This document shows positions 4,256 through 18,671 of a stretch of DNA of 64,000 nt, piece after piece (within the stretch, counting starts at the first letter, position 1; the number at the start of each line of letters is the position of its first letter). The stretch spans positions 1,984,001-2,048,000 of the forward strand of contig NZ_RJJY01000002.1 of the NCBI RefSeq assembly GCF_003751085.1, in the 5' to 3' direction. Under the pieces are notes generated by a model, which worked only from the letters and a program-made list of their open reading frames with translations, searched no databases and was not told the DNA's origin. The DNA comes from Micromonospora sp. Llam0 (lineage in GTDB: Bacteria > Actinomycetota > Actinomycetes > Mycobacteriales > Micromonosporaceae). Made by a program: the position numbers and the translations under genes.

Positions 4256-4451
4256 CGCTGCTCACCTGCCTCTCCGGCAGAGACGGGCTCGTCCCTCTCC
4301 GGCAGGAACAGGCTGCGCGGGCCCGCTGCCGGCGGCAAGACCTCTGTCGACAATCCGGCTGTGACGCGGCGCTGAGCCGACCGTGACCGCCGTTCCGATC
4401 CTGATTACGCCGGTCACGGACGGCGCGACCGGCAGAGCAGAAGGAGGAACG

Positions 4452-5033
4452 GTGCGAAGGCACGTAGGTATCGGAACCCTGGTGGCGGTCGCCACGGCAG
4501 TCGCGGTAGTCGGTCCAGTCGGACCGGCCGCCGCCACCCACACCTGTGACGGCGAGCCGGTTACCATCAGCGGCTCCGGCACGATCAACGGGACGAGCGG
4601 ACGGGATGTGATCCGAGGCTCGTCCGGCAGCGACATCATCGACGGCCGGGGCGGCAACGACGTCATCTGTGCCGGCGGTGGGGTGGACGCCGTCTACGGT
4701 GGTCAGGGCGCCGACCGCATCTTCGGAGAGGGCGGAGCCGACTTCCTGTGGGGTGAGGGCCTCGGTGTCGTGGTGACCGGCGGCGCCGACGAGATCTGGG
4801 GTGGCACCGGCGACGACACCATCTACGGCCAGGTCGGGGGCGACACCCTGCGTGGCAACGAGGACAACGACGACATCTACGGCGGGGATGGGCCCGACAC
4901 CATCTTCGGCGGGATCAACATGGCCGAGACCAGCGGCGCACAACTCGACGCCTGCTACGGCAACAGCGGCAACGACACCATCCGGTCCGGGTTGACCGGC
5001 CACCCGAACGAATGCGAGGTCGTCGTCGACTGA
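4452..5033 (+). CDS. Secreted RTX-type calcium-binding repeat protein
   Basis: GTG at 4452 is preceded by AAGGAGG and begins a signal peptide (VRRHVGIGTLVAVATAVAVV, cleavage probably after AAA). The mature 160 or so residues contain hemolysin-type nonapeptide repeats of the GGxGxDxhh kind: GRGGNDVI, GGQGADRIF, GEGGADFLW, GGTGDDTIYG, GGDGPDTIFGG and SGNDTI. Such repeats bind Ca2+ and fold as parallel beta rolls. No catalytic domain is present; the protein is just repeats with a few Cys (ICA, CYG, NECE). 193 residues. Followed directly by a strong palindromic terminator. A start at 4383 is possible but has no ribosome binding site. Function beyond calcium binding is unknown. Confidence 0.8.
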   Translation: MRRHVGIGTLVAVATAVAVVGPVGPAAATHTCDGEPVTISGSGTINGTSGRDVIRGSSGSDIIDGRGGNDVICAGGGVDAVYGGQGADRIFGEGGADFLWGEGLGVVVTGGADEIWGGTGDDTIYGQVGGDTLRGNEDNDDIYGGDGPDTIFGGINMAETSGAQLDACYGNSGNDTIRSGLTGHPNECEVVVD

Positions 5034-5043
5034 CCACTGGCAC

Positions 5044-5073
5044 CGGTGACGGGGCGGTACCGCCCCGTCACCG
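5044..5073 (+). terminator. 30-bp perfect palindrome, terminator of RTX gene
   Basis: A perfect 30-bp inverted repeat centred on TA (arms CGGTGACGGGGCGGT and its complement), 10 bases after the RTX stop codon and 31 bases before the AICE left boundary. No T-tract, as usual for high-GC actinobacterial terminators. Confidence 0.7.
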
Positions 5074-5104
5074 ACACGGGTGCGTGTGCCTGCTGTCGCG
5101 TTCT

Positions 5105-5135
5105 GTGGAGCCAAGGGGACTCGAACCCCTAACCC
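5105..5135. repeat. attL, 31-bp copy of tRNA-Ala 3' end
   Basis: Identical over 31 bases to 18137-18167, which covers the T-arm and 3' acceptor strand of the tRNA-Ala gene plus one flanking base. This is the junction made by site-specific integration. The tRNA remnant here lacks the 5' half and anticodon, so it is not a gene. Confidence 0.9.
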
Positions 5136-5235
5136 GCGTCCGGGCTGCGGATCGGGTCAAACCGGGCGGGTCGGCTCGCTGGCCTGCGGCGGGTTCCTCG
5201 ATGTCTCTCGGCCCCTCGCAGCCGCTTCGGGCCTC

Positions 5236-5258
5236 GTTTGTACCGACGTTGTCGTAGT
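5236..5258 (+). repeat. Candidate integrase arm site, left end
   Basis: A 23-bp sequence starting GTTTGTAC and ending TAGT that matches 18071-18093 at 18 of 23 positions in the same orientation. Each copy has two TTGT units 11 bp apart, one helical turn. Its presence just inside both element ends suggests Int or Xis arm-type binding sites. Confidence 0.45.
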
Positions 5259-5323
5259 TGATCATGGCCGACCCGGTGGACCTGCTGTCACCGTCGGGTA
5301 CGGCGGCCGACGCGCGGCTTCGC

Positions 5324-5332
5324 TGGTATATT
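5324..5332 (+). promoter_or_regulatory. Extended -10 promoter, leaderless start
   Basis: TGGTATATT fits the extended -10 pattern TGnTATAnT. It ends 7 bases before the ATG at 5340, so the predicted transcription start falls on or next to the A of ATG, giving a leaderless mRNA. There is no ribosome binding site in this gap, which supports the reading. No clear -35. Confidence 0.5.
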
Positions 5333-5339
5333 TTCTGGC

Positions 5340-5954
5340 ATGTTTTCGTACCCATCCTTCCGTGAGGTCTGCGACTCCCTGGGAGACAAGGTCTTGACGG
5401 GCATCAGCAAGTCGGCAGCAGGAACCGCACAGGACCTTCGCCTGTACCGCAGAACCTTCCCTACCTGGGTGGCACGAGGCAGCGAACGCGGGCTCGCGAA
5501 CTGGATCCACGACCGCATGTGGGACCACCTCACAGTGCAACTGGATGGGATACCGAACGTGAACATCCACGACCACGAACCGACACGAGAGATCACGGTG
5601 GGCTGGCAGCACCGGCTTCGAGTCAAGCGCCACAGCTCGTCAGGTGTCGTTCGGACCTATCCGACCCCTACCGCGCTTGAGTTCATGTTCCAAGGGCAGC
5701 TTGCCCTAGAGGGACTTGAGGAGATTCGACTGATAACAGGGTATATGTGGGACTCTGATCTCCGGCAAGTCGGGGTCCCGGTGATCTCGCTCCGGGACGG
5801 ACGTGACAAGATCATATGGCTGGAGGAGCTCCCTCCGGCCGATGAGTCGGGTGACACTGGCACCTTGGACCTCACTCCACCACCAACGGACGGGCCAATC
5901 GCCCCGGTGGTCGACATCAATAGGCCGTCCGCGAAGGAGGCTGAGCCCGAATGA
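5340..5954 (+). CDS. Unknown protein paired with HTH-ImmA/IrrE protein
   Basis: I do not recognise the family. 204 residues, no signal peptide or membrane segment. The first 170 residues look like a compact alpha/beta domain; visible features are WIHDRMWDHL near residue 60, NVNIHDHEP near 75-83 and IIWLEELPP near 160. The last 35 residues are Asp/Pro-rich and probably disordered. The stop overlaps the start of the HTH-ImmA gene by 4 bases (ATGA), so the two are co-translated. Cargo at AICE ends next to an HTH-metalloprotease regulator is often a toxin or defence effector; here that is inference. Start chosen at ATG 5340 because of the leaderless promoter. Confidence 0.75.
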   Translation: MFSYPSFREVCDSLGDKVLTGISKSAAGTAQDLRLYRRTFPTWVARGSERGLANWIHDRMWDHLTVQLDGIPNVNIHDHEPTREITVGWQHRLRVKRHSSSGVVRTYPTPTALEFMFQGQLALEGLEEIRLITGYMWDSDLRQVGVPVISLRDGRDKIIWLEELPPADESGDTGTLDLTPPPTDGPIAPVVDINRPSAKEAEPE

Positions 5955-6991
5955 ACTACCTCGGCGAGGCTCTTATGACAGCTCGCCGGGCACGCGGACT
6001 CACGCAGGAAGAGTTGGCAATTATGGCGGGGGTCACTCAGGCCGCCCTTTCACGCTACGAGCACGACCAACGGGAACCAGACGAAGATGTCTTGGCAGCA
6101 CTTGCGGGGGCGCTCGGTGTGACAGCTGACTTTCTTCGCGGGACCGGACGCGTGAACGGCGCGATGGCGATCGACGCCCACATGCGACGCCAGGCAACCG
6201 TCAAGCCCACGATTTGGCGAAGACTTGAAGCAAAACTAAACATGTACAGGATGCACACTCGCCACCTTTTCGAAGAAGTGTCGCTACATGCCGATCAACG
6301 CATTCCGACCTTCGATCCAATCGACGTTGATCCTGCCGCAGCAGCACGCCTTGTTAGAATGCAGTGGCGACTACCAACCGGACCCGTTCGCCACCTTGTT
6401 CGTTGGCTTGAGGCTGCTGGATGCCTGGTCTTGGAAGAGGACTTCGGCACGCCGCGCATCGATGGATTATCGCAATGGATTGGCGATCATCCCATTATGC
6501 TAATAAATCTCCGCGCACCTACAGATCGCAAGCGCCTCACACTCTCACACGAACTGGGCCACCTCGTCCTACACTCATCCCACGTCTCGCCAGAGATCGA
6601 GCGCGAAGCGAATGCTTTTGCCGCCGAATTTCTAATGCCCGGAGATGTAATTCGCCCACAACTACGACAATTGTCACTCGGTCGACTCGTAGATCTAAAG
6701 CGCGAGTGGGGCGTTTCAATGCAGGCAATTATTGAGCGCGCATCGAGCCTTGGAACAATTCAGCCGACAGCGCGCACAAACCTCTATAAGCAGTTGAGCG
6801 CGAAGGGCTGGCGCACACAAGAGCCGGCGAGTGACGAGATCGCACCCGAACATCCTCACTTACCCAGCAGCATCGGGACGATGCTCTCAGAAAAGGGTTT
6901 CACCGCGCAGCAAATTGCCGCTATTGCTGGGTTTGATGAAGGCGAAGAGCATCCTTTCCGACCACCCAGCCGCATTCTGCGTGCCGTTTAG
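5951..6991 (+). CDS. XRE-type HTH regulator with ImmA/IrrE metallopeptidase domain
   Basis: 346 residues. Residues 5-60 are an XRE helix-turn-helix (ARRARGLTQEELAIMAGVTQ, then ALSRYEHDQREP). The central region holds an ImmA/IrrE (DUF955) zinc peptidase with HELGH near residue 200 and the downstream EREANAFAAEFLMP motif that supplies the third ligand. Proteins of this design usually cleave or bind a partner repressor or antitoxin, or act as the antitoxin of a two-gene unit. Translationally coupled to the upstream 204-residue protein. The 3' two thirds (from about 6220) is AT-richer than its surroundings, with codons such as ATA, CTA, AAT and ATT that neighbours avoid, a sign of recent acquisition. 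Substrate unknown. Confidence 0.9.
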   Translation: MNYLGEALMTARRARGLTQEELAIMAGVTQAALSRYEHDQREPDEDVLAALAGALGVTADFLRGTGRVNGAMAIDAHMRRQATVKPTIWRRLEAKLNMYRMHTRHLFEEVSLHADQRIPTFDPIDVDPAAAARLVRMQWRLPTGPVRHLVRWLEAAGCLVLEEDFGTPRIDGLSQWIGDHPIMLINLRAPTDRKRLTLSHELGHLVLHSSHVSPEIEREANAFAAEFLMPGDVIRPQLRQLSLGRLVDLKREWGVSMQAIIERASSLGTIQPTARTNLYKQLSAKGWRTQEPASDEIAPEHPHLPSSIGTMLSEKGFTAQQIAAIAGFDEGEEHPFRPPSRILRAV

Positions 6992-7509
6992 AAATCACAA
7001 GTGATCTCCCCGTCCCGTCTGCCGTCGACTCACCCAACGGGATTCGGGCCACGCGCTCAGGGCGCATGCAGAGTGTTTATACGTCTGACCCTTGGTCACC
7101 CTGAGGTCGGTCGGCTTTGCCTTGCCTAGGCTCGACAGTGGCGGGCTCCTCAACTACATGGCGCGGCGCGGCGGGCGGTTGCCCGGCGGTGACGGTGGTT
7201 TTCCGCCCCGGCCGCGTAGCGGTCCGGGGCGGCTTGCCGCCGGGCGGTGTTCCGCCCGCGCGCCGCGCTGGGCGCGGCGCCTTGATCCAGTACAGAACTA
7301 TTCGGCAACGTGGGAAGCAGTGACTGCGGGTTGCTGCTGCTGGTACGCGGCCCTGCGCAAGCGGCAGAAGATTTAGGTTGCTGACGGTCTTCCGAGAGTG
7401 CTGCCGACGTAGGTCGGGACCAAGCCGACCCGCACCGCAGCCGCGCCAGCGGCGAGGAGCGGAAGCGGCGCGGTAGTTGGGTTGACCATGACTCGCGTCA
7501 ACGGCGACG
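6992..7509. other. Non-coding AICE segment with hairpin array
   Basis: 518 bases without a convincing gene; the 94-codon frame at 7092-7376 has no ribosome binding site and low-complexity translation. It contains three consecutive stem-loops (separate entry) and a 6-bp GGTCGG/CCGACC hairpin at 7412-7430. It separates the left cargo from the regulatory/transfer genes and is a reasonable place for a cis-acting transfer locus (clt) or terminators. Confidence 0.5.
7203..7280. repeat. Three tandem GC-rich stem-loops
   Basis: Stem 1, 7203-7232: CCGCCCCGG arms with an inner CCGC/GCGG stem, one bulged base and a GTA loop. Stem 2, 7241-7258: 7-bp arms CGGGCGG with a TGTT loop. Stem 3, 7260-7280: 9-bp arms GCGCCGCGC with a TGG loop. 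They are separated by 8 and 1 bases only. Confidence 0.65.
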
Positions 7510-8025
7510 TCAGGTCACGCGGTGGTGCTGGGCCTGGTCCTCGTCGGCGGTGACGGTGGCGCTGCGGTAGTCGATTCCGCGTAGCTCAGTGCGGGCGTCA
7601 ACGAGGGTCGCCGCGATGGTTCGGGCTGTTTGGATGGCTGCGGTGAGGTCGTGGGCGTGGATGGGGATGTGGACGATGTAGCGGCGTTGCGCGCCGGAGT
7701 CGCTGGCGGCGGTCGCTCGGTCTGCGTCGTTCTGGTGGGCGCTGTCGGCGCTGTGCGGGGCGGGTGTTGGTCGGGTGTGGGTGCCTCGGCCGTGTTCGGT
7801 GGTGACGAGTCCGTCTTGTCGTAGGGCGTTGATGGCGGCGCGGATGGTGCCGCGTGCGACGTTGAACTCTTTGGCGAGTGCGGTTTCTGCGGGTAGGAGT
7901 GCGCCGGGTGGTATGGCGCCGCTGGTGATGCGGTCGCGGAGTTGGTCGGCTACGCGGCGGTAGCGGGGTGTTCCGTAGTGCGGGGTTGGCACTTGTGTCA
8001 CGTTACCTGTCTGTTGTGTAGTCAA
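7510..8025 (-). CDS. KorSA-like GntR-family repressor
   Basis: 171 residues. Residues 16-85 form a GntR winged helix: YRRVADQLRDRITSGAIPPG, then LPAETALAKEFNVARGTIRAAINALRQDGLV and a GRGTHT wing. The C-terminal 85 residues are short, Asp/Ala-rich then alpha/beta (RRYIVHIPIHAHDL), without a UTRA or FadR domain. Size, family and place in the element match KorSA of pSAM2, which represses its own gene and pra to keep the element integrated. Upstream of its start is a sequence (8068-8086) closely related to the inverted pair over the pra promoter, supporting this role. Transcribed away from the transfer genes. Confidence 0.8.
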   Translation of the reverse strand: MTTQQTGNVTQVPTPHYGTPRYRRVADQLRDRITSGAIPPGALLPAETALAKEFNVARGTIRAAINALRQDGLVTTEHGRGTHTRPTPAPHSADSAHQNDADRATAASDSGAQRRYIVHIPIHAHDLTAAIQTARTIAATLVDARTELRGIDYRSATVTADEDQAQHHRVT

Positions 8026-8053
8026 GTGCCGTCTGGCTGCTCGTTTCTACGTC

Positions 8054-8086
8054 TGGACAACAGGTCCACTTGTAGGTACGTTTCCC
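8054..8086. promoter_or_regulatory. Candidate KorSA operator upstream of its own gene
   Basis: Two signals lie here, 29-61 bases upstream of the repressor start. TGGAC-N5-GTCCA is an inverted repeat at 8054-8068. The segment 8068-8086, beginning ACTTGTAG, matches 15 of 19 positions of the right half-operator over the pra promoter (11312-11332, minus strand). Confidence 0.5.
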
Positions 8087-8166
8087 TGTGTGTGGTCGGG
8101 TTAGCCGCTCGTGATCAAGGGGTTGGCTGCGTTCGGCGTCCCGGCCACACGCTCGCGTACTGCCTG

Positions 8167-8341
8167 TCAGCACCTCCTATGTGGTGGGGGTGCGGGTGGT
8201 GTGCGTCCTGGTCGGGGTGCGGCGTTACCCGACTCCGCCCGCCGGGCGGTGCGCCGTGTCTCGCGGTGGGGCCGGCGGCTCTGTGCGTTCCCCCCGTTGC
8301 GTGTGGGGTCGCCGGTCTCCTGTCAGCGTGGGAGGTGCTGA
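8167..8341 (+). promoter_or_regulatory. Long-range inverted repeat covering a ribosome binding site
   Basis: TCAGCACCTCC at 8167-8177 is exactly complementary to GGAGGTGCTGA at 8331-8341, which contains the ribosome binding site of the small gene starting at 8344. Wobble pairs could extend the duplex a few bases toward the loop. If transcribed together the pairing would hide the site. The 8026-8343 gap otherwise holds the repressor operator region and no recognisable gene. Confidence 0.4.
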
Positions 8342-8343
8342 TC

Positions 8344-8538
8344 ATGAAAGCTTCGCGGACATGTCTGGTGGCGTGGTGGCGTCGTCGACGTCGGACCGGC
8401 CCGACTGTGCGGGCGGTGGCTCGTGTCGTTCCTGGGTGGGCGGTGGAGCCGACCCGGGTGTCTCCGCTGGTGGTGGGTGCGCCGTTGTTGACGGTGGGTC
8501 AGCGGTTCCGGGCTGCTGGTGGGCGGTGGTCGCGGTGA
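8344..8538 (+). CDS. Small basic AICE protein
   Basis: 64 residues beginning MKASRTCLVAWWRRRRRTG. ATG at 8344 has the strong site GGGAGGTG 6-7 bases upstream, and the stop overlaps the GTG start of the next gene as GTGA, so it is translationally coupled. The N-terminal half is rich in Arg and Trp; the C-terminal half is hydrophobic (PLVVGAPLLTVGQRF). No family recognised. The main argument for reality is the ribosome binding site plus the exact overlap. Confidence 0.55.
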   Translation: MKASRTCLVAWWRRRRRTGPTVRAVARVVPGWAVEPTRVSPLVVGAPLLTVGQRFRAAGGRWSR

Positions 8539-8912
8539 CCCCAGTCGGTGGTGGTGCGGAGAAGGTGGAGCATCCGGCGTGGTGTGCGCGGGATCGGTGT
8601 GGGCATGTGGTGCCTCCGTTGTTCGCGCACATGGCGCGGCGGCACCGGTCCAGGTTGTGTCAGGTGGGCACGCCTCGTGTCGCGGGCGGCAGTGTGGTCG
8701 CCTATCTGATCGGTGGTGACCGGCTGCCACCGGTGGTGGCGGTACACGCGGCTGCTCCATGGCTCGGCGCGGGGTGTGCCGAGTTGCGGCTGTCGGAAGT
8801 ACGCAAGCTCGTCGACGCGTTGACCGGCCTGCTCGCCGACGCCGACGCGGCCGGCACCGGACCGGGCGACGACACCAACGGCGCCGACCGGGGGAAGGCG
8901 GGCGGCTCGTGA
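8535..8912 (+). CDS. Small Cys/His protein, DUF6907-like
   Basis: 125 residues from GTG 8535. The segment HPAWCARDRCGHVVPPLFAHMARRHRSRLCQVG is a Cys/His-rich module of the type found at the N-terminus of short actinobacterial DUF6907 proteins, followed by a strand-rich part (GGSVVAYLIGGDRLPPVVAVH) and a C-terminal helix (LRLSEVRKLVDALTGLLADAD). Such proteins are common in AICEs and phage-like regions; function is unknown. Starts and stops overlap both neighbours by 4 bases (GTGA), making 8344-8912-9421 one coupled unit. Family assignment is from pattern memory and moderate. Confidence 0.65.
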   Translation: MTPVGGGAEKVEHPAWCARDRCGHVVPPLFAHMARRHRSRLCQVGTPRVAGGSVVAYLIGGDRLPPVVAVHAAAPWLGAGCAELRLSEVRKLVDALTGLLADADAAGTGPGDDTNGADRGKAGGS

Positions 8913-9421
8913 ACGGGGAGGATGCCCGGCCGGGGGGCCTGGTGTTGTGTCCGGTGTGGTGTGCGGGGTGTGGTCCGCGTGACCGGATGCACCGGGCCGG
9001 TCTGGTGACGGCGGGGACGGAGCGCACGGGCTGGGTCAGCGCGGATGTGATCGCCGATCACGGTGCGGTGTCGGACGTACGGGTGAAGGTGGACGTCACC
9101 CGGTACGCGTCAACCCAGACGGTGTTGCTGCAGCCGGGTCCGGCGGCGCGGTTCCTCGGCGGCCTGAACCAGGCGACGCGGCTGCTGCACGCGTTCACCC
9201 GCCCGACCGAGCGGGTGGAGGGGTTGGCGTACCGGCGGGCGGCGCAGTTGGAGCCGGGGATGCGGGTGCTGCTGTTCGGCGGCGTGGTTTTGGTCGTCGA
9301 CACCGACGAGGTTCCGGAGTTCCCGACAGCGGCGCTGTTGTCGGTGCGGCAGGAGTCCGGCGGCCCGGTCTACACGGTGCTGGTGCCGGCCGACATGGAG
9401 CCGCTGGTGATCGGACCATGA
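8909..9421 (+). CDS. Second DUF6907-like AICE protein
   Basis: 170 residues from GTG 8909, overlapping the previous stop as GTGA. The N-terminus has LCPVWCAGCGPRDRMHRAG, the same C-x2-W-C/H pattern as the preceding protein, suggesting a duplicated family. It continues with VRVKVDVTRYASTQTVLLQPG and a C-terminal part with LEPGMRVLLFGGVVLVVDTDE, which reads like a beta-barrel fold. No enzyme motif seen. The stop overlaps an ATG at 9418 of the next frame, but the next gene probably starts later, from its own promoter. Confidence 0.65.
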   Translation: MNGEDARPGGLVLCPVWCAGCGPRDRMHRAGLVTAGTERTGWVSADVIADHGAVSDVRVKVDVTRYASTQTVLLQPGPAARFLGGLNQATRLLHAFTRPTERVEGLAYRRAAQLEPGMRVLLFGGVVLVVDTDEVPEFPTAALLSVRQESGGPVYTVLVPADMEPLVIGP

Positions 9422-9493
9422 CCCAGCGGATCAGCCGCAGGGTGGTGCGGGGCGGGGTGTGGGCGGACCGTCCGGGAGCGCCGACCACCTGGC

Positions 9494-9521
9494 AGACGTA
9501 TGAACGTCTAGGGGGTAGCGT
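9494..9521 (+). promoter_or_regulatory. Palindrome and -10 before GntR-UTRA gene
   Basis: AGACGT-ATGA-ACGTCT at 9494-9509 is a perfect 6+6 inverted repeat, followed by TAGCGT at 9516-9521, a plausible -10 that ends 7 bases before the GTG at 9529. This suggests an autoregulated, leaderless promoter for the regulator. Confidence 0.4.
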
Positions 9522-9528
9522 TGCCGGC

Positions 9529-10341
9529 GTGACGGCCAAGGACTGGCGACCCCGGTATCTGCAACTCGCTGAGCAGTTGCGGGGTCAGATCCTGTCCGGG
9601 GACATGCCGCCGGGCACGTTGATGCCGTCGGAAACCGAGTTGGCCGACTCGTCGGGCCTGTCGCGCACGAGTGTCCGTAACGCGATCCGGCAGCTGCGGG
9701 AATGGGGCCTGGTCCGCGCCGAACAGGGCAGGGGCACCTACGTACGGGCTCCCCGTCAACGGGTCCGGCGGCGAAACACGGAGCGCTACCAGTGGGAGAA
9801 GGACCGCGTCCTCCTCCCCGAGGCGGAACGGCGGGCGACGGGCGGCACGGAGCATGACACCGGTCTGACGGTCGATGATCTGAAGTTCCACGCCGAGTAC
9901 ACCCGCGTCCCGGCCGATGCCGAGATGGCTGCCGCGTTCGGCGTCGAGCCGGGTACGGAGTTGCTGCGGCGGGTGTACTGGACGACGACCCGGTCTGAGT
10001 CGGCTCCGTTGTCGGTGTCGTACTCGTTCCTGCCGGTGGCGTTGATCGCCGGGAACCCGGACCTGCTCGACGCGGGCAACGAGCCGTGGCCGGGCGGTAC
10101 GCAGCATCAGCTGTACACGGTCGGCATCGAGCTGGACCGGATCGTGGACGAGATCCGGGCGCGGCCGCCGTCACCGGATGAGGCCGAACTCCTCGACATC
10201 GATCCGGGCGTGTCCGTGCTGACCGTGCGGAAGACGTCAGTGGACATCGGTGAGCGGGTGGTGGAGGTCGCCGACGTCGTCATGCCCGGCGACCGCACCG
10301 AGCTCGTGTACTCGAACACGCTCACCCGGTGGCCTGCTTGA
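9529..10341 (+). CDS. GntR-family regulator with UTRA domain
   Basis: From GTG 9529 the protein is 270 residues. Residues 4-70 are a GntR winged helix (RYLQLAEQLRGQILSGDMPPGTLMP, then SETELADSSGLSRTSVRNAIRQL and the GRGTYV wing). The remainder is a UTRA ligand-binding domain (KFHAEYTRVPADAEMAAAFGVEPGTELLRRVYW ... LSVSYSFLP ... ELLDIDPGVSVLTVRKTSVD), usually sensing a small metabolite. An upstream ATG at 9418 would add 37 residues and overlap the previous stop, but that extension has no domain and contains the candidate operator. This is a second GntR protein in the element, distinct from the short KorSA-like one. Confidence 0.8.
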   Translation: MTAKDWRPRYLQLAEQLRGQILSGDMPPGTLMPSETELADSSGLSRTSVRNAIRQLREWGLVRAEQGRGTYVRAPRQRVRRRNTERYQWEKDRVLLPEAERRATGGTEHDTGLTVDDLKFHAEYTRVPADAEMAAAFGVEPGTELLRRVYWTTTRSESAPLSVSYSFLPVALIAGNPDLLDAGNEPWPGGTQHQLYTVGIELDRIVDEIRARPPSPDEAELLDIDPGVSVLTVRKTSVDIGERVVEVADVVMPGDRTELVYSNTLTRWPA

Positions 10342-11093
10342 CCCAGGTCGTTTCGGTCATCACCCCGGTGCACCTGCCGAGCATCGGCTATCTCGCCGAC
10401 GCCTACGCCTCCCTGGCCGCCCAGGACATGCCGGACGGCTGGGGGTGGCGGTGGCTGGTCCAGGAGGACGGACGCACCGGGGCCGTGGCCGACGCCCTAC
10501 CCGACGACCCGCGTATCTCCGTGGGTGTCGGCCGTCCCGGCGGCCCTGGTGTGGCCCGGACCCTCGCGATGGAACGGGTCGACGGGCCGTTGGTGAAGGT
10601 CCTCGACGCCGACGACCAACTCACCCCCGGTGTCCTCGCCCGGGATATTGCTACCCTGACCGCGCATCCGTCGGTGGGCTGGTCGACGTCGCGGGTGCTG
10701 GATCTGCTGCCGGACGGGTCCACGGTCGGCTTCGACTCCGACCCGCCCGCCGGCCCGATCGCCTGTGGTGACGTGCACGCGTTCTGGCTCGCCAACGACT
10801 ACCGGGCACCGGTGCATCCGGCGACGCTGTGTCTGCGTACGGATGTGCTGTTCGCCCTGGGCGGCTGGATGGCCCTGCCGGCGTCCGAGGACACCGGCCT
10901 ACTCCTGGCCGCGAGCACCATCACCGGCGGCTTCTTCAACGCGGAAACCGGGCTGCTGTACCGCAAGTGGCCCGGACAGGTCACCAGCCAGGCCGCGCAC
11001 CGCGAACCAGCCGAACACGCGACCCGGATGCGGATCATCGAAAGACGGGTACGGGCGCTGACCGCGCTCAACACCACGATCACCCTGTCCTAA
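10329..11093 (+). CDS. Family 2 glycosyltransferase
   Basis: 254 residues starting at GTG 10329, or at TTG 10338 which overlaps the previous stop. GT-A fold: N-terminal VVSVITPVHLPSIGYLADAYASL nucleotide-binding strand, the metal-binding DADD motif (VKVLDADDQLTPG) near residue 93, and the downstream acceptor region GGWMALPASEDTGLLLAA with the catalytic-type ED. No membrane segment, so cytosolic. Coupled to the GntR-UTRA gene, so possibly controlled by it. Sugar donor and acceptor cannot be told from sequence. As AICE cargo it may modify a surface component or a transfer-related target; that is speculation. Confidence 0.8.
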   Translation: MACLTQVVSVITPVHLPSIGYLADAYASLAAQDMPDGWGWRWLVQEDGRTGAVADALPDDPRISVGVGRPGGPGVARTLAMERVDGPLVKVLDADDQLTPGVLARDIATLTAHPSVGWSTSRVLDLLPDGSTVGFDSDPPAGPIACGDVHAFWLANDYRAPVHPATLCLRTDVLFALGGWMALPASEDTGLLLAASTITGGFFNAETGLLYRKWPGQVTSQAAHREPAEHATRMRIIERRVRALTALNTTITLS

Positions 11094-11107
11094 CCGGCTC
11101 CCGTCCC

Positions 11108-11143
11108 GCCCCGGCCTGGTCCACAGCCGGCCGGCGGGGCTTC
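11108..11143 (+). terminator. Terminator after glycosyltransferase gene
   Basis: GCCCCGGCC paired with GGCCGGCGGGGC across a 12-base loop, with a 3-base bulge, followed by CTTCTTCG. It lies 15 bases after the glycosyltransferase stop. Confidence 0.55.
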
Positions 11144-11264
11144 TTCGTGTGCCCGTCGATCTCTCCGGGTGCTCGTCGGCGTCCGTCGACCCGGTAGCCG
11201 GTCTGGGCGGGGTTGCGGTGTGGGCCGCAAGGGTCATTCGGGGTATACCGGACCACTTTCCGAG

Positions 11265-11332
11265 ACTTGTTGACATGTCTGCCAAGTAGTCCCTACCTTT
11301 GGTCTTGCCGGTTGGCAGACGTTACTACAAGT
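11265..11332 (+). promoter_or_regulatory. pra promoter with 21-bp inverted operator pair
   Basis: TTGACA at 11270-11275 and TACCTT at 11294-11299, 18 bases apart, form a good promoter for the Pra-like gene. It is bracketed by inverted 21-bp arms, 11265-11285 and 11312-11332, matching at 17 of 21 positions: both begin ACTTGT and end GTCTGCCAA. The left arm covers the -35, the right arm lies just after the expected start site. A related copy lies before the KorSA-like gene (8068-8086). An 8-bp palindrome GGTATACC is at 11242-11249. Confidence 0.7.
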
Positions 11333-11346
11333 TGGGAGTGGCAGAG

Positions 11347-11766: not shown

Positions 11767-11776
11767 GTCCTGGTTC

Positions 11777-11818
11777 GGGGTGGGGCTGTCTGGTCTTGGC
11801 GGACGGCAGCCCCACCCC
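11777..11818 (+). terminator. Strong hairpin after pra
   Basis: GGGGTGGGGCTG and CAGCCCCACCCC form a perfect 12-bp stem around an 18-base loop that can pair further (GTC/GAC). It lies 10 bases after the pra stop. No T-tract. Confidence 0.7.
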
Positions 11819-11867
11819 TGGTGTCTTCCCCCACTCCTCTTCTTCTCAGATTCGGTGAGGTTCCGAC

Positions 11868-12098
11868 GTGTCCCAGGTTAAGCGCGCCCCGGATCGGGCG
11901 CGGATCCGCTGTAGCGACTGCAAGAACATGTTCACCCCCACCCCCACCCCCGACGTCCAGGGCGACACCGACAACGCCGCGACGGCTGGCGGGGATGCGG
12001 CCCGGTGCGGGCTGTGCGCCGGTCAGCTGGTGTTGCCGTTCCCCCGGCTGCGCGACGCTCGCGGCCGATTCCTGCCCGTCGTCGGTGGTGGCCGATGA
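11868..12098 (+). CDS. Small zinc-ribbon AICE protein
   Basis: 76 residues from GTG 11868, with GGTGAGG upstream. Two Cys pairs, RCSDCKN near residue 15 and RCGLCAGQ near residue 47, separated by a Pro/Thr/Asp linker, make a zinc-ribbon. The N-terminus is basic. Stop overlaps the FtsK-like gene start as ATGA. A short ribbon protein before the translocase is a frequent AICE arrangement; its function is not known to me. Confidence 0.7.
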   Translation: MSQVKRAPDRARIRCSDCKNMFTPTPTPDVQGDTDNAATAGGDAARCGLCAGQLVLPFPRLRDARGRFLPVVGGGR

Positions 12099-13777
12099 TC
12101 GGGCGTCCCCGTGGTGAGGTCGTCACCACCGTCTCCGGTGACCTGCTCGTGGTCCGGCCCCGCCGGCTGCGGCTGCCCTGGTGGGCGGTCCTCCTCGGGC
12201 TGCTGGCCCGCTGGACCGGTCGGGGCCTGTGGTGGTGCCTCAAGCACCCCCGCATCCTCACCGTCTCCGTGATCACGGTCGCCGTGTACCTCGACTACGG
12301 CATTGCCGGACTGGTCACCCCGGTTGTGCTGGCCGGGTTGGGTTCGGCGGTGTGGCGGTGGCGGCACGAAACGTCCTGGTGGGCGTGGTGCGCCGGGCCT
12401 GTGCTCGGCCGGTGGCGGCACACAGTCGTCTATCGGCGGGTGTGGCGTGAAGCGATGACCATGTGCGACCTGTCGCGGGTCTACCAGCACCAGACCGTGT
12501 TACCGCAACTCCTGGCCGTGCACTGTGACCAGACCCTTGACGTGTTGTCGGTGCGGATGCTGCGCGGGCAGACCCCCGCCGACTTCCAACACGCGACCGA
12601 ACAGCTGGCGTACGCGTTCGGCCGACGGCACGCACGGGTCTACACCGAACGCCCCGACGAACTTCCCGTGCGTGGCGGCGGCTGGGTGGGCTGGCTGCTG
12701 CGCCAGGTCGACGCCTACCGGTTCCGCGACCGGCCCGACGTCGTCTACATCGTCCTGGTCCGCACCGACGCCCTACGCCGGACCGTTCCGCCGTTCCCGG
12801 TGCCGACCGTGCCGGACTTCACCGCGCTCTCCCTCGCCGTACGGGAAGACATGCGGACCTGGCATCTCCACCTGTTGGCGACGCATGTGCTGATCGGTGG
12901 GGCGACCCGACGCGGGAAAGGCTCCGTCCTCTGGTCCCTCGTGCGGTCCCTCGCTGGTGGGGTGTCGTCTGGGCTGGTCCGGCTGTGGGTGATCGACCCC
13001 AAGGGCGGGATGGAATTCGCGTTCGGCCGGCCGATGTTCGCCCGGTTCGCCTCCACCTCCTTCGACGCCATGGCCGACCTCCTCGATGAGGCCGTCGTCG
13101 TGCTGCGGGAACGGCAGGCACGCCTTGCCGGCTCGGTCCGGGTCCACACACCAAACGTCAACGATCCGCTGGTTGTCGTGGTGATCGACGAGATGGCGGC
13201 GCTGACGGCGTACCTGCAAGACGTCGAGCTGCGTAAGCGGATCGCCGCCTCGTTGGGGCTGCTGCTGTCGCAGGGTGCCGGCGTCGGTGTCCTCGTGGTG
13301 GCCGCGTTGCAGGACCCGCGTAAGGAGGTGCTGCCGTTCCGGGACCTGTTCCCCACCCGCATCGCGCTCGGTCTGACCGAGGCATCGCAGGTCGACATGG
13401 TGTTGGGCGACGGCGCACGCAACCGGGGCGCGTTGGCGGATCAGATGCCGTCCTGGGCCAAAGGCGTCGGCTACGTCCTGCTGGACGGCACCCCCGACCC
13501 GGTCCGGGTCAGGTTCTCCTACCTCACCGACACCGACATCAAAACCATGGCAGCCGAGTACGCCGCCCCGGTAGCCGCTGCGGACATCCTCGCCCAGGTC
13601 GGCCGGGAAACCACACCCGAACCGGAACAGACTGCCGCGTCGACCCGGCGGATTCCGTTGCCCCGTAGACCATCCGGGCCGCTGCTGCCTGACTCACTAC
13701 TCAACCTGCTCCGCGACAACAACGGCCGGCACGACCAGGGCGACACCGACACCAACAGCGGCGGTGGTCCCCGATGA
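12095..13777 (+). CDS. FtsK/SpoIIIE-like conjugative DNA translocase (TraSA type)
   Basis: 560 residues from ATG 12095. Two or three N-terminal hydrophobic segments (LPWWAVLLGLLARW, ILTVSVITVAVYLDYG, VTPVVLAGLG) anchor it to the membrane. The motor domain has Walker A GGATRRGKGS near residue 268 and Walker B LVVVVIDEMAAL near 362, plus the FtsK-type downstream segments LLSQGAGVGVLVVAALQDPRKEVLP and RIALGLTEASQVDMVLGDGA. In this element class one such hexameric ATPase moves double-stranded DNA from donor to recipient at the hyphal contact. The C-terminal 60 residues are Pro/Asp-rich and disordered. It overlaps both neighbours by 4 bases, starting the transfer/replication operon. Confidence 0.92.
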   Translation: MIGRPRGEVVTTVSGDLLVVRPRRLRLPWWAVLLGLLARWTGRGLWWCLKHPRILTVSVITVAVYLDYGIAGLVTPVVLAGLGSAVWRWRHETSWWAWCAGPVLGRWRHTVVYRRVWREAMTMCDLSRVYQHQTVLPQLLAVHCDQTLDVLSVRMLRGQTPADFQHATEQLAYAFGRRHARVYTERPDELPVRGGGWVGWLLRQVDAYRFRDRPDVVYIVLVRTDALRRTVPPFPVPTVPDFTALSLAVREDMRTWHLHLLATHVLIGGATRRGKGSVLWSLVRSLAGGVSSGLVRLWVIDPKGGMEFAFGRPMFARFASTSFDAMADLLDEAVVVLRERQARLAGSVRVHTPNVNDPLVVVVIDEMAALTAYLQDVELRKRIAASLGLLLSQGAGVGVLVVAALQDPRKEVLPFRDLFPTRIALGLTEASQVDMVLGDGARNRGALADQMPSWAKGVGYVLLDGTPDPVRVRFSYLTDTDIKTMAAEYAAPVAAADILAQVGRETTPEPEQTAASTRRIPLPRRPSGPLLPDSLLNLLRDNNGRHDQGDTDTNSGGGPR

Positions 13778-14043: not shown

Positions 14044-14049
14044 CCCCCG

Positions 14050-14262: not shown

Positions 14263-14873
14263 CCTGGCAACGCACGGAAACCCTGCTGCGGCTGGTGATC
14301 CTGCTCGCCATCGGCTCGATGGCCGGCGCGGCCGCGTTCACCCACGTCCATGACCTGTCCGTCGCCCACGGCCAACCCCACTGGATCGGCTGGGCCAACG
14401 CCGTCGCCGTCGAACTCATGGCCATCTACCTCGGCCTGGAAATCCGGGCACGGCGTCGGGCGTGTCGACCCGTCGGGTTCGTCGCCGTCCTCCTCGTCGG
14501 CTTCGCACTCCTCTCCCTCGCCGCGCAGGTCGCTGAGGCCGAACCGTCCGTGTGGGGCTGGATCGTCGCCGCTGTCCCATCGCTGGCGTTCCTCGCCCTG
14601 GTCAAAGTCGTCCTGTCCAGCGCACCCGCTGTCCCAGCTGGTCCGGCGTCGTCGACTGCGGCGGCCAACACGGCTGGTCCGGCTGAGCGGGTGCGCGTCG
14701 ACCAGGCCGACGCCGTCGACCAGGTCCCCACCGACGACACCGACCCGGAACCGGATCACGTCGAGCAGCCTGCCGTCGTCGAACCCGTCCGCGTCGCCGG
14801 ACACGGATCGGTGCTGCCGCCGCTCGGGGTCGTCCAGCCGCGACGGGCAAACGGGATGGTGGTCGGCCGGTGA
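14259..14873 (+). CDS. DUF2637-family membrane protein, Spd-like
   Basis: 204 residues from GTG 14259. Four hydrophobic segments in the first 130 residues: LLRLVILLAIGSMAGAAAF, WANAVAVELMAIYLGLEI, VGFVAVLLVGFALLSLAAQV and WIVAAVPSLAFLALVKVVL. The FTHVHDLSVAHGQPHWIGW motif after the first segment is typical of DUF2637. The rest is an acidic cytoplasmic tail. Proteins of this type occur in AICEs and plasmids beside the translocase and resemble the spread (Spd) proteins that move the element within the recipient mycelium. That role is inferred from position and topology. Confidence 0.75.
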   Translation: MTWQRTETLLRLVILLAIGSMAGAAAFTHVHDLSVAHGQPHWIGWANAVAVELMAIYLGLEIRARRRACRPVGFVAVLLVGFALLSLAAQVAEAEPSVWGWIVAAVPSLAFLALVKVVLSSAPAVPAGPASSTAAANTAGPAERVRVDQADAVDQVPTDDTDPEPDHVEQPAVVEPVRVAGHGSVLPPLGVVQPRRANGMVVGR

Positions 14874-16657
14874 CCGTACCCACGACCATCCCCGGCCTGG
14901 AAGCATCCGCCACGGATCGGCCGGCGACTGTCGAGCAGCCTCGGCCCGGCTCCCGTGCCGCGCGGATGGGCCTGCCCCGGTCGGTTGATGTCCTGCGCGA
15001 CGTCGCCACCGAATACGGGGTCTGCATCCGTCCGCTCGCGATGCGGCGGACCGATCTCGACACCGGCCGTACCGAGGTCATCGACCTGCCCTGCGGGGCG
15101 ACCCGCGAGGACAAGTGCCCGCCGTGCGCGAAGCGGAACCGCCGACTGCGGCAAGCGCAGATCCGCGACGGCTGGCACCGCGACGACGAACCGTTGCCAC
15201 CACCCAAACCGGCATCGGATGAGCAGAAGGCGCTGATCGTGCTGCGGGCGCACTTCGAGTTCGAACGCGACGCGGCCGTACGGGAAGCCGACTGGGACCA
15301 GGTCACCGACCTCGACGACGCCATCACCGAGGTTGAAGACGCCATCACGGCTGAAGGACTACGCGGCCGCGTCGCACCACCCCACACCCCGACCACTGAC
15401 GACGGGGACAGCGTCGACCAGGGCGACACGCAGGACAGCGGCAAGCGGCGGAAGCGGTCGACCAGGCGACGGCAGGACGCACCCGACCTACCCCGCCGAC
15501 CCGTCGAAGCACGCACCGTCGGCAAGACGTACACCGCACCCGACGGCAACACCTACCGGCCGTCGATGTGGCTCACACTCACCCTCGACTCCTACGGACC
15601 CGTACGACCCGACGGCACCCCGGTCAACCCCGACCGGTACGACTACCGGCGTGCGGCGTGGGACGCGGTCCACTTCCCCCGACTCCTCGACCGGTTCTGG
15701 CAGAACCTGCGCCGGTGTGAAGGCTGGAACGTCCAGTACGCCGGATGCGTCGAGCCGCAACGCCGTCTCGCGCCTCACGCGCACTTCGCGATCCGCGGCA
15801 CCATCCCCCGGCAGACCCTGCGGACCGTGGCGGCGGCCACCTATCACCAGGTGTGGTGGCCGTCCGTCGACGTCCAGCACTACGGCGGCGAACACCTGCC
15901 CGTCTGGGACGTCGACCAGGCAGCCTGGGTCGACCCGGACACCCGCGAGCCGCTGACCGGATGGGCGGAAGCACTCGACGCGGTTGACGCCGATCCGGAC
16001 GCGGAACCGGTCCACGTGGTCCGCTTCGGCTCCCAGGTCGACGCACGCGGCGCCATGCCAGGCACCACCGACGCTGAGCGGACCATCCGCTACATCACGA
16101 AGTACATCACCAAACACGCCGCCGACTGCCACACCACCACCAGCGGCCGGCAACGCCAACACCTCGAACGGTTCTGGCGACAACTGCAGGTCACCCCCTG
16201 CACCGACCGCTGCGCGAACTGGCTGCTCTACGGCGTCCAACCGAAGAACGCGTCGGCGAAGCTGCGGCCGGGACGCTGCCGGGGCAAAGTCCACCAACGC
16301 GCCACCCTCGGCATCGGCGGCCGGCGCATCCTCATCTCCCGCGACTGGTCCGGCAAAACCCTCACCGACCACAAACACGACGCCCGCGCCTGGGTCCGGG
16401 CGCTACTCGGCGCAACCACCGACCTGGCCGGCGTCGACCAGCCCACCGGCACCGACGGCGCGACCTCGTCCCGGCACGCCTGGGAGCTGGCCCGACCCGA
16501 CGACCCCGACGTCACCCCCCTCGGGCACCGACTCCTGCGCTCCATCTCCGAACGCGCCCGCTGGCGCTCCCAACTGCTCGCAGCGAAGGACCGGGCGGCC
16601 CAGGAGGCGAGGCACGACCTTTCGGCAACTGGCGACGGCGGCGAAGGGATGCAATGA
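14870..16657 (+). CDS. RepSA-like rolling-circle replication initiator
   Basis: 595 residues from GTG 14870, overlapping both neighbours. The N-terminus has a Cys cluster (LPCGATREDKCPPCAKRN) that probably binds zinc. A 100-residue charged linker follows. The initiator core has MWLTLTLDSYG (motif 1), the metal-binding LAPHAHFAIRG motif (HxH near residues 303-305) and the tyrosine motif RTIRYITKYITKH near residues 405-416 with Tyr for nicking. After that comes TPCTDRCANWLLYGVQPKNA and a GIGGRRILISRDWSGKTL segment seen in RepSA proteins. It makes the excised element replicate before transfer. All key residues are present, so it looks active. Confidence 0.9.
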   Translation: MTVPTTIPGLEASATDRPATVEQPRPGSRAARMGLPRSVDVLRDVATEYGVCIRPLAMRRTDLDTGRTEVIDLPCGATREDKCPPCAKRNRRLRQAQIRDGWHRDDEPLPPPKPASDEQKALIVLRAHFEFERDAAVREADWDQVTDLDDAITEVEDAITAEGLRGRVAPPHTPTTDDGDSVDQGDTQDSGKRRKRSTRRRQDAPDLPRRPVEARTVGKTYTAPDGNTYRPSMWLTLTLDSYGPVRPDGTPVNPDRYDYRRAAWDAVHFPRLLDRFWQNLRRCEGWNVQYAGCVEPQRRLAPHAHFAIRGTIPRQTLRTVAAATYHQVWWPSVDVQHYGGEHLPVWDVDQAAWVDPDTREPLTGWAEALDAVDADPDAEPVHVVRFGSQVDARGAMPGTTDAERTIRYITKYITKHAADCHTTTSGRQRQHLERFWRQLQVTPCTDRCANWLLYGVQPKNASAKLRPGRCRGKVHQRATLGIGGRRILISRDWSGKTLTDHKHDARAWVRALLGATTDLAGVDQPTGTDGATSSRHAWELARPDDPDVTPLGHRLLRSISERARWRSQLLAAKDRAAQEARHDLSATGDGGEGMQ

Positions 16658-16839: not shown

Positions 16840-16840
16840 C

Positions 16841-18061
16841 ATGCCCGTTGATGATCTCTGGTATCTGAACAAGCGCGGGCCGAACGGCAAGCGGCTGCCC
16901 TCGAAGCGGCATGGACAGGGCAAGCGGTGGCGGGTCCGGTTCACCGACGCGTCCGGTCGGGCGCGCACCATGTTCTTTGAGCGCAAGGTCGACGCTGACG
17001 CGTGGGATGCCGATGCCCGTGCCGGTGTCGCCCGTGAGACCAGGGTCGACCTCGCCGACCGACAGATCACGTTCCGGGAGTACGGCGAGCGCTGGCGGCT
17101 GTCCCGTGAGATCGGTTGGGCGGTGGAGACTCGGCGGCGGGTGGAATCGAACCTGCGGCTGCACCTGTACCCGGTGTTCGGCGACCAACCGGCGCGGTCG
17201 ATCCGGCTCACATCCGTACTCGAATGGTTGACCCGCCGGCTGTCCGAGGACACCCCGGGATCGACGCTGCGGCTGTACTTCGAGCTGCTGGATGCGGTCC
17301 TGGCGGCGGCCGTCGCGGACAAGCTCATCCCGGACAACCCGTGCGACGGGGTGAAGCTGGCCCAGGTGCTGCGGGGCGTCTCGCGGGTGCCCAAGTGGGT
17401 GCCGACTGAGGCGGAGGTGTTGGCGCTGATCGACGCCGTTCCGCCGCGCTACCGGGCGGCCATCTGGCTCGGTGCGGGTCAGGGCTGCCGGCACGGTGAG
17501 GCGCTGGGGATGGAGGACGGGACGCGGTGCGTCGACGCCGGGCGCGGCGAGCTGCACATCGTTCAGCAACTGCGCTACTCACCCAAGGTGTACGGCGGGT
17601 TCTACCTCAGTGAGCCGAAAGCTCGTTCGTCCGGCACGATCGATCTGGATCCGGTGGTGGCGGAGATGCTGGCCGATCACGTCCGCGAGTTTCCGCCGGT
17701 CGGCGTCGAGCTGGTCGACATCTGCGGGGGTGATCCGGTGCGCCGGACGGTGCCGCTGTTGTTCACCACTACGCGCGGTCGGCCGTTCACTGACCGGACC
17801 TGGTCGCGGGAGTGGGCGCGATGGCGGGAGGCGGCGGGGTGGCCGAAGGAGCACGGCACGTTCCACGCGCTGCGGCACTTCTTCGCCACGACGTTGATCA
17901 CGAACCACGCCGAGCCGCAGGAGGTACAGCGGCTGCTGCGGCACAAGACGCTGCGGATCACGTTGGAGACGTACGTGCACTGGTGGCCGAAGCGGGAGCG
18001 CACGCGTGGCCTGGTCGGGGCGGCGTTGCGGGCGGCGGCGGGCGGGAGCCACCAACCATGA
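16841..18061 (+). CDS. int: Tyrosine site-specific integrase
   Basis: 406 residues. N-terminal arm-binding and core-binding part (RWRVRFTDASGRARTMFFERK, then a SAM-like helix bundle around TFREYGERWRLSREIGW), then the catalytic domain with Arg in GAGQGCRHGEALG (near 216), HALRHFFATTLI (His-x-x-Arg, near 342) and RHKTLRITLETYVHWW with nucleophile Tyr near 377. It recombines the 31-bp att core at the tRNA-Ala 3' end. Gene points toward the tRNA and ends 75 bases from it, the standard arrangement. All catalytic residues are present. Confidence 0.95.
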   Translation: MPVDDLWYLNKRGPNGKRLPSKRHGQGKRWRVRFTDASGRARTMFFERKVDADAWDADARAGVARETRVDLADRQITFREYGERWRLSREIGWAVETRRRVESNLRLHLYPVFGDQPARSIRLTSVLEWLTRRLSEDTPGSTLRLYFELLDAVLAAAVADKLIPDNPCDGVKLAQVLRGVSRVPKWVPTEAEVLALIDAVPPRYRAAIWLGAGQGCRHGEALGMEDGTRCVDAGRGELHIVQQLRYSPKVYGGFYLSEPKARSSGTIDLDPVVAEMLADHVREFPPVGVELVDICGGDPVRRTVPLLFTTTRGRPFTDRTWSREWARWREAAGWPKEHGTFHALRHFFATTLITNHAEPQEVQRLLRHKTLRITLETYVHWWPKRERTRGLVGAALRAAAGGSHQP

Positions 18062-18070
18062 TCAACTCTG

Positions 18071-18093: not shown

Positions 18094-18136
18094 GGATCTT
18101 GGGAAACGTCCAAGCCCTGGTCAGGACGGGTGGTGA

Positions 18137-18167
18137 GTGGAGCCAAGGGGACTCGAACCCCTAACCC
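18137..18167. repeat. attR, 31-bp core inside tRNA-Ala 3' end
   Basis: Identical to 5105-5135. It overlaps the last 30 bases of the tRNA-Ala gene, so integration leaves the tRNA intact. Confidence 0.9.
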
Positions 18168-18647: not shown

Positions 18648-18671
18648 CTCCGCTTCCCGGCGCGGGCCAGG

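What the first reader, a model, noticed from the sequence alone, without database searches (positions are those of the whole stretch)
5324..6991. Two-gene HTH-ImmA/IrrE cargo module with a leaderless promoter
A 204-residue protein of no recognised family is followed, with ATGA overlap, by an XRE-HTH plus ImmA/IrrE zinc-peptidase protein (HELGH, EREANAFAAEFLMP). An extended -10 ends 7 bases before the ATG. The pair sits alone at one AICE end and its second gene has AT-richer codon use than the surroundings. Established: HTH-ImmA proteins regulate or neutralise a partner in phage-immunity and toxin-antitoxin-like defence modules (RosmerTA is one named type with an ImmA/IrrE component). Inference: this pair is a toxin/effector plus regulator giving anti-phage or element-maintenance function.
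Basis: partly seen in the sequence, partly recalled or inferred. Interest (0 to 1): 0.7.

Follow-up and report, generated by a model that had tools for sequence, protein, structure and literature searches.

The report
Toxin-regulator defence pair on mobile element
A swappable cargo slot of a self-transferring bacterial DNA element carries two genes that travel together, probably an uncatalogued toxin and the protein that restrains it, and the pair probably protects the host from phages.

Summary
In detail: a 204-aa gene (5340-5954) and a 346-aa XRE-HTH plus ImmA/IrrE gene (5951-6991) overlap by ATGA behind a leaderless -10, alone at the left end of a 13-kb AICE in tRNA-Ala. Gene 2 matches PADLOC RmrA (RosmerTA antitoxin) over residues 5-330. 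Gene 1 matches no model in Pfam, NCBIfam, PHROGs or PADLOC, but a gene-2 relative lies beside it in 34 of 34 distinct loci. Profile comparison links it to ~200-aa genes before RmrA on proteobacterial plasmids and a phage (E 2.7e-13). GGTATATTTTCYGGYATG is nearly invariant at gene-1 starts (24 of 33 exact) while DNA upstream is unrelated, and an inverted half-site in the first codons suggests an RmrA operator. And the same AICE in two sister species carries an NB-ARC/TPR gene in this slot instead. Most likely this is a RosmerTA-like defence module with an uncatalogued toxin family; whether it is one of NetFlax's unnamed toxin nodes could not be checked. The fold hints at PD-(D/E)XK without its acidic site. 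Toxicity, neutralisation and phage defence are untested, and toxin and antitoxin roles could be reversed.

The parts
5105..5135 (.). left attachment repeat: 31-nt perfect copy of the tRNA-Ala 3' end
   Evidence: the repeat finder D4; tRNA-Ala (TGC) at 18137-18210
5264..7163 (.). exchangeable cargo slot: absent from two sister AICEs whose other parts align at about 93% and which carry one large ORF here instead
   Evidence: blastn of window 4301-18800 against L114 and L115; Pfam NB-ARC and TPR in the L114 protein
5325..5342 (+). conserved leaderless promoter/operator GGTATATTTTCTGGCATG, ending in the start codon of gene 1
   Evidence: 33-locus comparison: information content 1.52 bits at -15..-1 against 0.16 at -60..-17; pattern searches
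5337..5352 (.). candidate operator inverted repeat GGCATG-N4-CGTACC over the start codon; degenerate here (4 of 6 pairs), complete GGTATG-N4-CATACC in 4 of 27 relatives checked
5340..5954 (+). gene 1: 204-aa protein of an uncatalogued RmrA-partner family; putative toxin/effector
   Evidence: AlphaFold2 model
5951..6991 (+). gene 2: 346-aa XRE-HTH plus ImmA/IrrE protein, RmrA-like; putative autorepressor/antitoxin
   Evidence: PADLOC RmrA 1e-59; phrog_2439 1.2e-81; Pfam
5972..6136 (+). HTH_3 domain of gene 2 (residues 8-62)
6410..6745 (+). Peptidase_M78/IrrE domain of gene 2 (residues 154-265); HELGH at 6548-6562; H200, E201, H204 and E217 invariant in 20 of 20 aligned sequences
7510..8025 (-). 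GntR-type regulator, first backbone gene beyond the slot
   Evidence: Pfam GntR 6.8e-20
12005..13777 (+). FtsK/SpoIIIE-like protein of the AICE
   Evidence: PF01580 2.5e-8
14870..16657 (+). RepSA-type replication initiator of the AICE
   Evidence: PF20199 9.4e-97
16841..18061 (+). probable tyrosine integrase (by reading of the sequence; not scanned against a family library)
   Evidence: ORF
18137..18167 (.). right attachment repeat, 3' end of tRNA-Ala

Best explanation
The pair is a RosmerTA-like toxin-antitoxin module that serves as anti-phage cargo in an exchangeable slot of an AICE. Gene 2 (HTH plus ImmA/IrrE metallopeptidase, RmrA-like) binds an operator that overlaps the leaderless -10 and the start codon, keeps both genes low, and restrains gene 1. 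On phage infection or DNA damage the ImmA domain inactivates the HTH part (cleavage in cis or trans, as ImmA does to ImmR), so the operon is derepressed and gene 1 is freed. Gene 1, from an uncatalogued RmrA-partner family, then stops growth, probably by acting on nucleic acid through a basic site around R94-x-K96. Shown here: gene anatomy, pairing, family relationships, the conserved promoter block, and the cargo swap. Inferred: operator binding, cleavage, toxicity, defence.
For: (1) Gene 2 matches PADLOC RmrA models (best 1e-59, residues 5-330 of 346). (2) Pairing: 34 of 34 distinct loci, 33 found with gene-1 queries and one through the promoter pattern, have a gene-2 relative next to gene 1 on the same strand, 26 of 34 with a 4-base overlap. 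In the order sample of 298 genomes, all 10 with a gene 2 above 500 bits have gene 1. (3) Gene-1 family against four ~200-aa proteins before RmrA-like genes on proteobacterial plasmids and an Acinetobacter phage: hhalign 98%, E 2.7e-13, 171 columns; R94, K96, T109 and W160 invariant in the 14 sequences aligned. (4) Promoter/operator block. (5) Mobile contexts: Gordonia phages beside an integrase, an M. abscessus prophage, a Rhodococcus plasmid, and the AICE slot occupied by an NB-ARC/TPR gene in sister elements. (6) RosmerTA systems pair different toxins with an ImmA-domain RmrA and are described as phage defence (PMC10440598, passages).
Against: No toxicity, neutralisation or phage data exist for this family here. 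No PADLOC model matches gene 1 (0 of 22 aligned members), and hhalign finds no link between gene 1 and the PADLOC-RmrT-like partners of other RmrA genes in the order. In PD-lambda-2 the XRE-peptidase protein was toxic when overexpressed alone (PMC9519451, passages), so roles could be reversed. One locus (L026, a metagenome-assembled genome) has gene 1 intact and gene 2 cut short, unexpected for a potent toxin. Three of 33 starts lack the promoter block (5, 8 and 9 mismatches) and T at -16, expected for an extended -10, is present in 17 of 33. The inverted operator arm is 4 of 6 in the window copy and 3 or fewer in 12 of 27 relatives; codon 6, outside the arms, is as AT-ending (19 of 27) as codons 2 and 3. 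The fold match to PD-(D/E)XK enzymes is weak.
Confidence: 0.6

Rival explanations
1. Reversed roles: the HTH-ImmA protein is the effector (or its sensor) and gene 1 is the inhibitor or a structural partner, as hinted by PD-lambda-2B.
For: Overexpressed PD-lambda-2B (XRE-peptidase fusion) was toxic alone (PMC9519451, passages). Gene 2 is the better conserved partner (mean column identity 64% in A4, 20 sequences, against 53% in A3, 22 sequences).
Against: RmrA of RosmerTA is described as the antitoxin (PMC10440598, passages). Gene 1 looks damaged beside a long gene-2 frame in L021, L027, L035, L036 and L039 while gene 2 alone is cut short only in L026; these are few, and some are metagenome-assembled genomes.
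Confidence: 0.17
2. An element-housekeeping switch: gene 2 controls AICE excision or transfer like ImmA/ImmR of ICEBs1, with gene 1 as an accessory.
For: ImmA cleaves ImmR to allow integrase expression in ICEBs1 (PMC10440598 and PMC2701414 passages). The pair is near one attachment site.
Against: Two sister AICEs with about 93% identical backbones lack the pair and are integrated at the same site. The pair occurs on unrelated phages, a plasmid and chromosomes. The 18-mer occurs once in the whole own genome at up to 1 mismatch, at gene 1, so no second promoter of this type was found.
Confidence: 0.1
3. A maintenance (addiction) module for the AICE with no role against phages.
For: TA pairs on mobile elements can stabilise them (established knowledge); the pair is carried by an AICE, plasmids and phages.
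Against: In the two sister AICEs the slot holds one large ORF, with NB-ARC and TPR domains in L114, not a TA pair; RosmerTA systems tested elsewhere are described as defending against phages (PMC10440598 passages).
Confidence: 0.13

Closest known systems
RosmerTA (RmrT/RmrA)
   Same: Two-gene operon; RmrA-type HTH plus ImmA/IrrE second protein (PADLOC match over residues 5-330); on phages, plasmids and islands.
   Different: Gene 1 and its aligned relatives match no PADLOC model (0 of 22) and are not linked by hhalign to RmrT-like partners. Gene 1 has no strongly hydrophobic stretch (highest 19-residue Kyte-Doolittle mean 0.53), whereas the toxin of the Kita RosmerTA depolarises membranes (PMC10440598 passages).
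Xre-COG2856 fusions with PIN or RelE toxins (Makarova 2009)
   Same: Fused XRE plus Zn-peptidase gene in an operon with another toxin-like gene, in phages and plasmids (PMC2701414 passages).
   Different: Gene 1 matches neither PIN nor RelE in Pfam.
PD-lambda-2
   Same: HigA-like XRE-peptidase fusion behind a HigB-like gene, defensive (PMC9519451 passages).
   Different: Three genes there, two here. PADLOC PD-Lambda-2_B matches gene 2 only weakly (4.3e-5).
CapH/CapP of CBASS
   Same: HTH repressor plus ImmA-type peptidase control a defence operon (recalled; the paper is not held); PADLOC capP 6.4e-18 and capH 1.2e-12 match the two domains of gene 2.
   Different: Two separate proteins there (recalled), one fused protein here. 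The slot's other gene is gene 1 only; it was scanned and has no CBASS match.

Membership tests
RosmerTA | RmrA: XRE HTH fused to ImmA/IrrE domain, matching RmrA models | tested here: met
   PADLOC RmrA 1e-59, residues 5-330 of 346, profile 10-349 of 400
RosmerTA | RmrT: partner matching an RmrT model | tested here: not met
   0 of 22 aligned family members match any PADLOC model at E<=1. Of nine partners of other RmrA-like genes scanned (from 20 loci L056-L075), 5 match PDLC03941 RmrT at E<=1, 4 at E<1e-3
RosmerTA | partner toxic, neutralised by RmrA, and pair protects from phage | not testable with these tools
   needs bench work
Type II toxin-antitoxin system | conserved two-gene operon on mobile elements | tested here: met
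   34 of 34 distinct loci, 26 with 4-base overlap; phage, plasmid and AICE contexts
Type II toxin-antitoxin system | antitoxin autorepresses the operon at an operator | tested here: inconclusive
   conserved promoter block and offset-specific inverted half-site; no binding data
PD-(D/E)XK nuclease superfamily (gene 1) | core fold | tested here: inconclusive
PD-(D/E)XK nuclease superfamily (gene 1) | acidic residue in strand 2 and (D/E)xK in strand 3 (motif recalled) | tested here: not met
   in the predicted strands 82-87 and 91-98 the invariant residues are R83 and R94, K96, R97, H98, with no invariant acid; which strand corresponds to which is my reading of the model
AICE (actinomycete integrative and conjugative element) | tRNA attachment repeats, RepSA-type replication, FtsK-like transfer protein, integrase | tested here: met
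   the integrase by reading only

The most novel reading that the evidence does not exclude
Gene 1 belongs to a cross-phylum family of RmrA-controlled toxins with a PD-(D/E)XK-like fold whose metal-binding acids were replaced by a basic R-x-K site, and its actinobacterial branch is ruled by a fused promoter-operator-start-codon at which the HTH-ImmA protein occludes a leaderless transcript start. The AICE slot is a dedicated exchange site for immune modules.
Probability: 0.25. Interest if true: 0.68.

Novelty: new variant of a known kind. Interest (0 to 1): 0.5.

Why it matters
It adds a partner family, seen in Actinobacteria and Proteobacteria, to the RmrA-controlled modules; a search that requires a match to the RmrT models of PADLOC-DB 2.0.0 would miss it (0 of 22). 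The near-invariant leaderless promoter-operator is a sharp signature (6 of 6 hits in 298 genomes lie at gene-1 starts) and a compact, testable model for how an HTH-ImmA protein keeps a toxin off. The exchange of this pair for an NB-ARC/TPR gene at one position of otherwise near-identical AICEs marks a cargo slot where further immune modules can be looked for.

Tried and rejected
Housekeeping or known-family identity for gene 1: Pfam (best GBS_Bsp-like, E 0.28, 11.6 of 31.6 bits), NCBIfam, PADLOC, PHROGs and PDB sequence searches gave nothing usable; scanning 22 relatives against Pfam and PADLOC added nothing. L004 (E 3.8e-4) has neither gene and was dropped as spurious. L094 (E 8.3e-4) has a weak match inside a long frame and no gene-2 relative; it was not counted. 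Link of gene 1 to PADLOC-RmrT-like partners: hhalign A3 or A8 against A5 failed; A5 found no viral relatives. Gene 1 alone found no viral relatives either; the alignment did.

Of ten regions around more distant RmrA-like genes, four partners went into A9. L097, L099 and L104 have ~220-aa genes upstream but aligned poorly in A7 and were dropped; L101 has a relative in two pieces; L100 is unannotated; L098 has no such gene annotated upstream, so not every RmrA-like gene has this partner. L057 joins only through A8 (E 3.9e-8), not directly. L072's partner was not linked.

Solved folds: Foldseek gave no PDB or viral match at E<=0.001; the VIA second look is suggestive only. Kita phage: a stand-alone HETFH protein beside its integrase is not similar to gene 2 by BLASTP (E 0.68); I could not establish which Kita genes were the tested pair. 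Four of the eight viral-contig motif hits have no gene-1 relative (L083, L086, L087, L089) and look coincidental. The motif is not seen by eye before six proteobacterial or divergent relatives. The family has no name to search papers by; papers were searched, and the NetFlax dataset (supplement) could not be read, so the family may be one of its unnamed nodes.

Full report
Observation. The two ORFs, the ATGA overlap, the HTH and ImmA/IrrE domains and the -10 ending seven bases before the ATG are in the sequence as described. The pair sits between a 31-nt perfect repeat of the tRNA-Ala 3' end at 5105-5135 and the rest of an element that carries a GntR gene, an FtsK-like protein, a RepSA replication protein and a probable integrase (read, not scanned), and ends at tRNA-Ala 18137-18210. 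GC3 is 0.717 for gene 1 and 0.562 for gene 2, against 0.756-0.872 for six other element genes.

Gene 2. It matches PADLOC RmrA models (best 1e-59, residues 5-330 of 346) and phrog_2439 (1.2e-81). NCBIfam's best model is the spr1629 repressor/antitoxin, well below its cut-off (124.6 of 335 bits). H200, E201, H204 and E217 are invariant in the 20 sequences of A4.

Gene 1. It matches no family, and none of 22 aligned members matches PADLOC. Matches were found in 4 of 101 relative genomes including its own, one of them the spurious L004; 11 of 298 genomes of the order; 3 of 396 of the phylum sample, namely its own, a distant one with gene 2 beside it (L093) and a doubtful one without (L094); 21 loci in genome contigs; 3 viral contigs; 5 Rhodococcus plasmids; and 8 phage records, seven Gordonia (Howe twice) and one M. 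abscessus prophage.

Pairing. Of 45 loci checked, 34 are distinct; 33 came from gene-1 queries and one (L090) through the promoter pattern. In 34 of 34 a gene-2 relative lies beside gene 1 on the same strand (strands), 26 with a 4-base overlap; several copies are damaged. L093 was not in this set. Conversely, in 298 genomes of the order gene 2 gives 504-615 bits in 10 genomes, all with gene 1, then drops to 248 bits and lower in other RmrA-like genes. G169 has fragments of both; G300 has a 134-aa gene-2-like fragment (175 bits, one stop) and no listed gene-1 match. Among phages, the 8 records with the closest gene-2 relatives (50-57% identity) are the 8 with gene 1, of 25 with any match; three of the 8 were opened. 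Among plasmids, the 5 closest of 310 are the 5 with gene 1; one was opened.

Wider family. I opened ten regions around more distant RmrA-like genes. Four have unnamed ~200-aa genes upstream that resemble gene 1 (Roseicitreum, Rhizobium, Polaromonas plasmids, Acinetobacter phage); three have ~220-aa genes that align poorly, one has a relative in two pieces, one is unannotated, and one has no such gene annotated. The gene-1 profile against these four gives 98% probability, E 2.7e-13 over 171 columns; against the Roseicitreum protein alone 96.6%, E 6.9e-10. Bridging relatives are L093 (E 1.6e-8) and L063 (E 1.2e-5). Across 14 aligned sequences R94, K96, T109 and W160 are invariant. Among nine partners of other RmrA-like genes in the order given to PADLOC (of 20 loci), 5 match RmrT at E<=1; the six-sequence profile of that kind is not linked to gene 1. 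Gene 1 thus belongs to a separate partner family that the libraries searched here do not list. The NetFlax study pairs several toxin nodes with its ImmA node (PMC10440598, passages); its dataset could not be read, so the family may be there without a name.

Promoter/operator. In 33 of the 34 distinct loci (L040 lacks the start), information content averages 1.52 bits at -15..-1 and 0.16 at -60..-17; 24 of 33 match GGTATATTTTCYGGYATG exactly, 4 have one mismatch, 2 two, 3 five or more. L090 matches by construction, and for five loci the start was placed with the help of the motif region. T at -16, expected for an extended -10, is present in 17 of 33. In 298 genomes the 18-mer with up to one mismatch occurs 6 times, all at gene-1 starts, and the reversed control pattern 0 times; 5 of the 11 gene-1 genomes lack it at that stringency. 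In viral contigs 4 of 8 exact hits are gene-1 starts. In 27 of the 34 loci (L021, L027, L035, L036, L038, L039 and L040 left out as damaged or on the minus strand) the left arm GGYATG pairs best with the hexamer at +7 (mean 3.89 of 6; next best of offsets 4-30, 2.48); the pairing is 6 of 6 in four loci, 4 of 6 in the window, 3 or fewer in twelve. Codons 2 and 3 end in A or T in 19 and 20 of 27 against 456 of 1890 (24%) at codons 16-85; codon 6, outside the arms, is also high (19 of 27). I infer that the first codons are constrained at DNA level as an operator. The motif is confined to this branch as far as seen.

Cargo slot. In two sister species the same AICE is integrated at the same tRNA-Ala: window 7164-18800 (the last 0.6 kb chromosomal) aligns at 92.9% and 93.5%, and the left edge 5104-5263 at 91%. 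Between these they carry one 890- or 848-aa ORF instead of the pair; the 890-aa protein has NB-ARC (1.2e-9) and TPR matches and only a weak PADLOC match (PDC-M02A, 5.6e-4). The two are 97.5% alike there, so they count as one event. A third species has an 1118-aa TPR protein with a weak AAA_16 match beside a homologous backbone gene; its attachment site was not checked. A fourth (L132) showed no clear counterpart. NB-ARC/TPR proteins often act in conflict systems (established knowledge), so this suggests, but does not prove, an immune-cargo slot.

Mechanism and known systems. RosmerTA pairs various toxins with an ImmA-domain antitoxin and defends against phage (PMC10440598, passages). XRE-peptidase fusions were predicted as TA-like in 2009 with PIN or RelE partners (PMC2701414, passages). 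In PD-lambda-2 the fusion was itself toxic (PMC9519451, passages), which is the main reason that I keep reversed roles as a rival. Of these papers and of PMC6426606 and PMC3218068 I saw passages (and one part of a reference list), not whole texts. ICEBs1 cleavage of ImmR by ImmA is the model for the proposed switch; nothing here shows cleavage.

Verdict. The pair is a RosmerTA-like module with an uncatalogued partner family, a conserved leaderless promoter-operator and an exchangeable AICE position. Function is untested.

Noticed in passing
L105:327-3117 (own genome, contig C1, about 5585226-5588016): A second RmrA-like gene (PADLOC RmrA 2.2e-130) lies beside a divergent gene with pPIWI_RE_Y and pPIWI_RE REase domains.
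   Followed up: partly
window 7173-7307: A roughly 135-bp GC-rich intergenic stretch beside the cargo slot recurs in other genomes of the family: 145 of 200 have some match to 7164-8164, and many listed matches cover only this part or a piece of it.
   Followed up: no
L114:1815-4487 and L131:3490-6846: Large NB-ARC or AAA_16 plus TPR repeat proteins occupy the cargo position in sister elements; the L114 protein has only a weak PADLOC match, the L131 protein was not scanned there.
   Followed up: partly
window 19677-23462: gyrA reads as 1261 aa with what looks like an intein inserted (by reading).
   Followed up: no
window 4383-5033: A 216-aa protein with RTX calcium-binding repeats (PF00353, 8.4e-24) lies just outside the left attachment repeat.
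   Followed up: no
L007 (Howe) and L133 (Kita): Howe and Kita belong to phage cluster CZ (PMC6426606 passages). Howe carries this pair next to an integrase; Kita has no gene-1 match and has a stand-alone HETFH protein near its integrase.
   Followed up: partly
L021, L026, L027, L035, L036, L039, L040: Damaged copies occur: gene 1 in L021, L027, L035 (stop near its end), L036 and L039, gene 2 in L026, both in L040.
   Followed up: no
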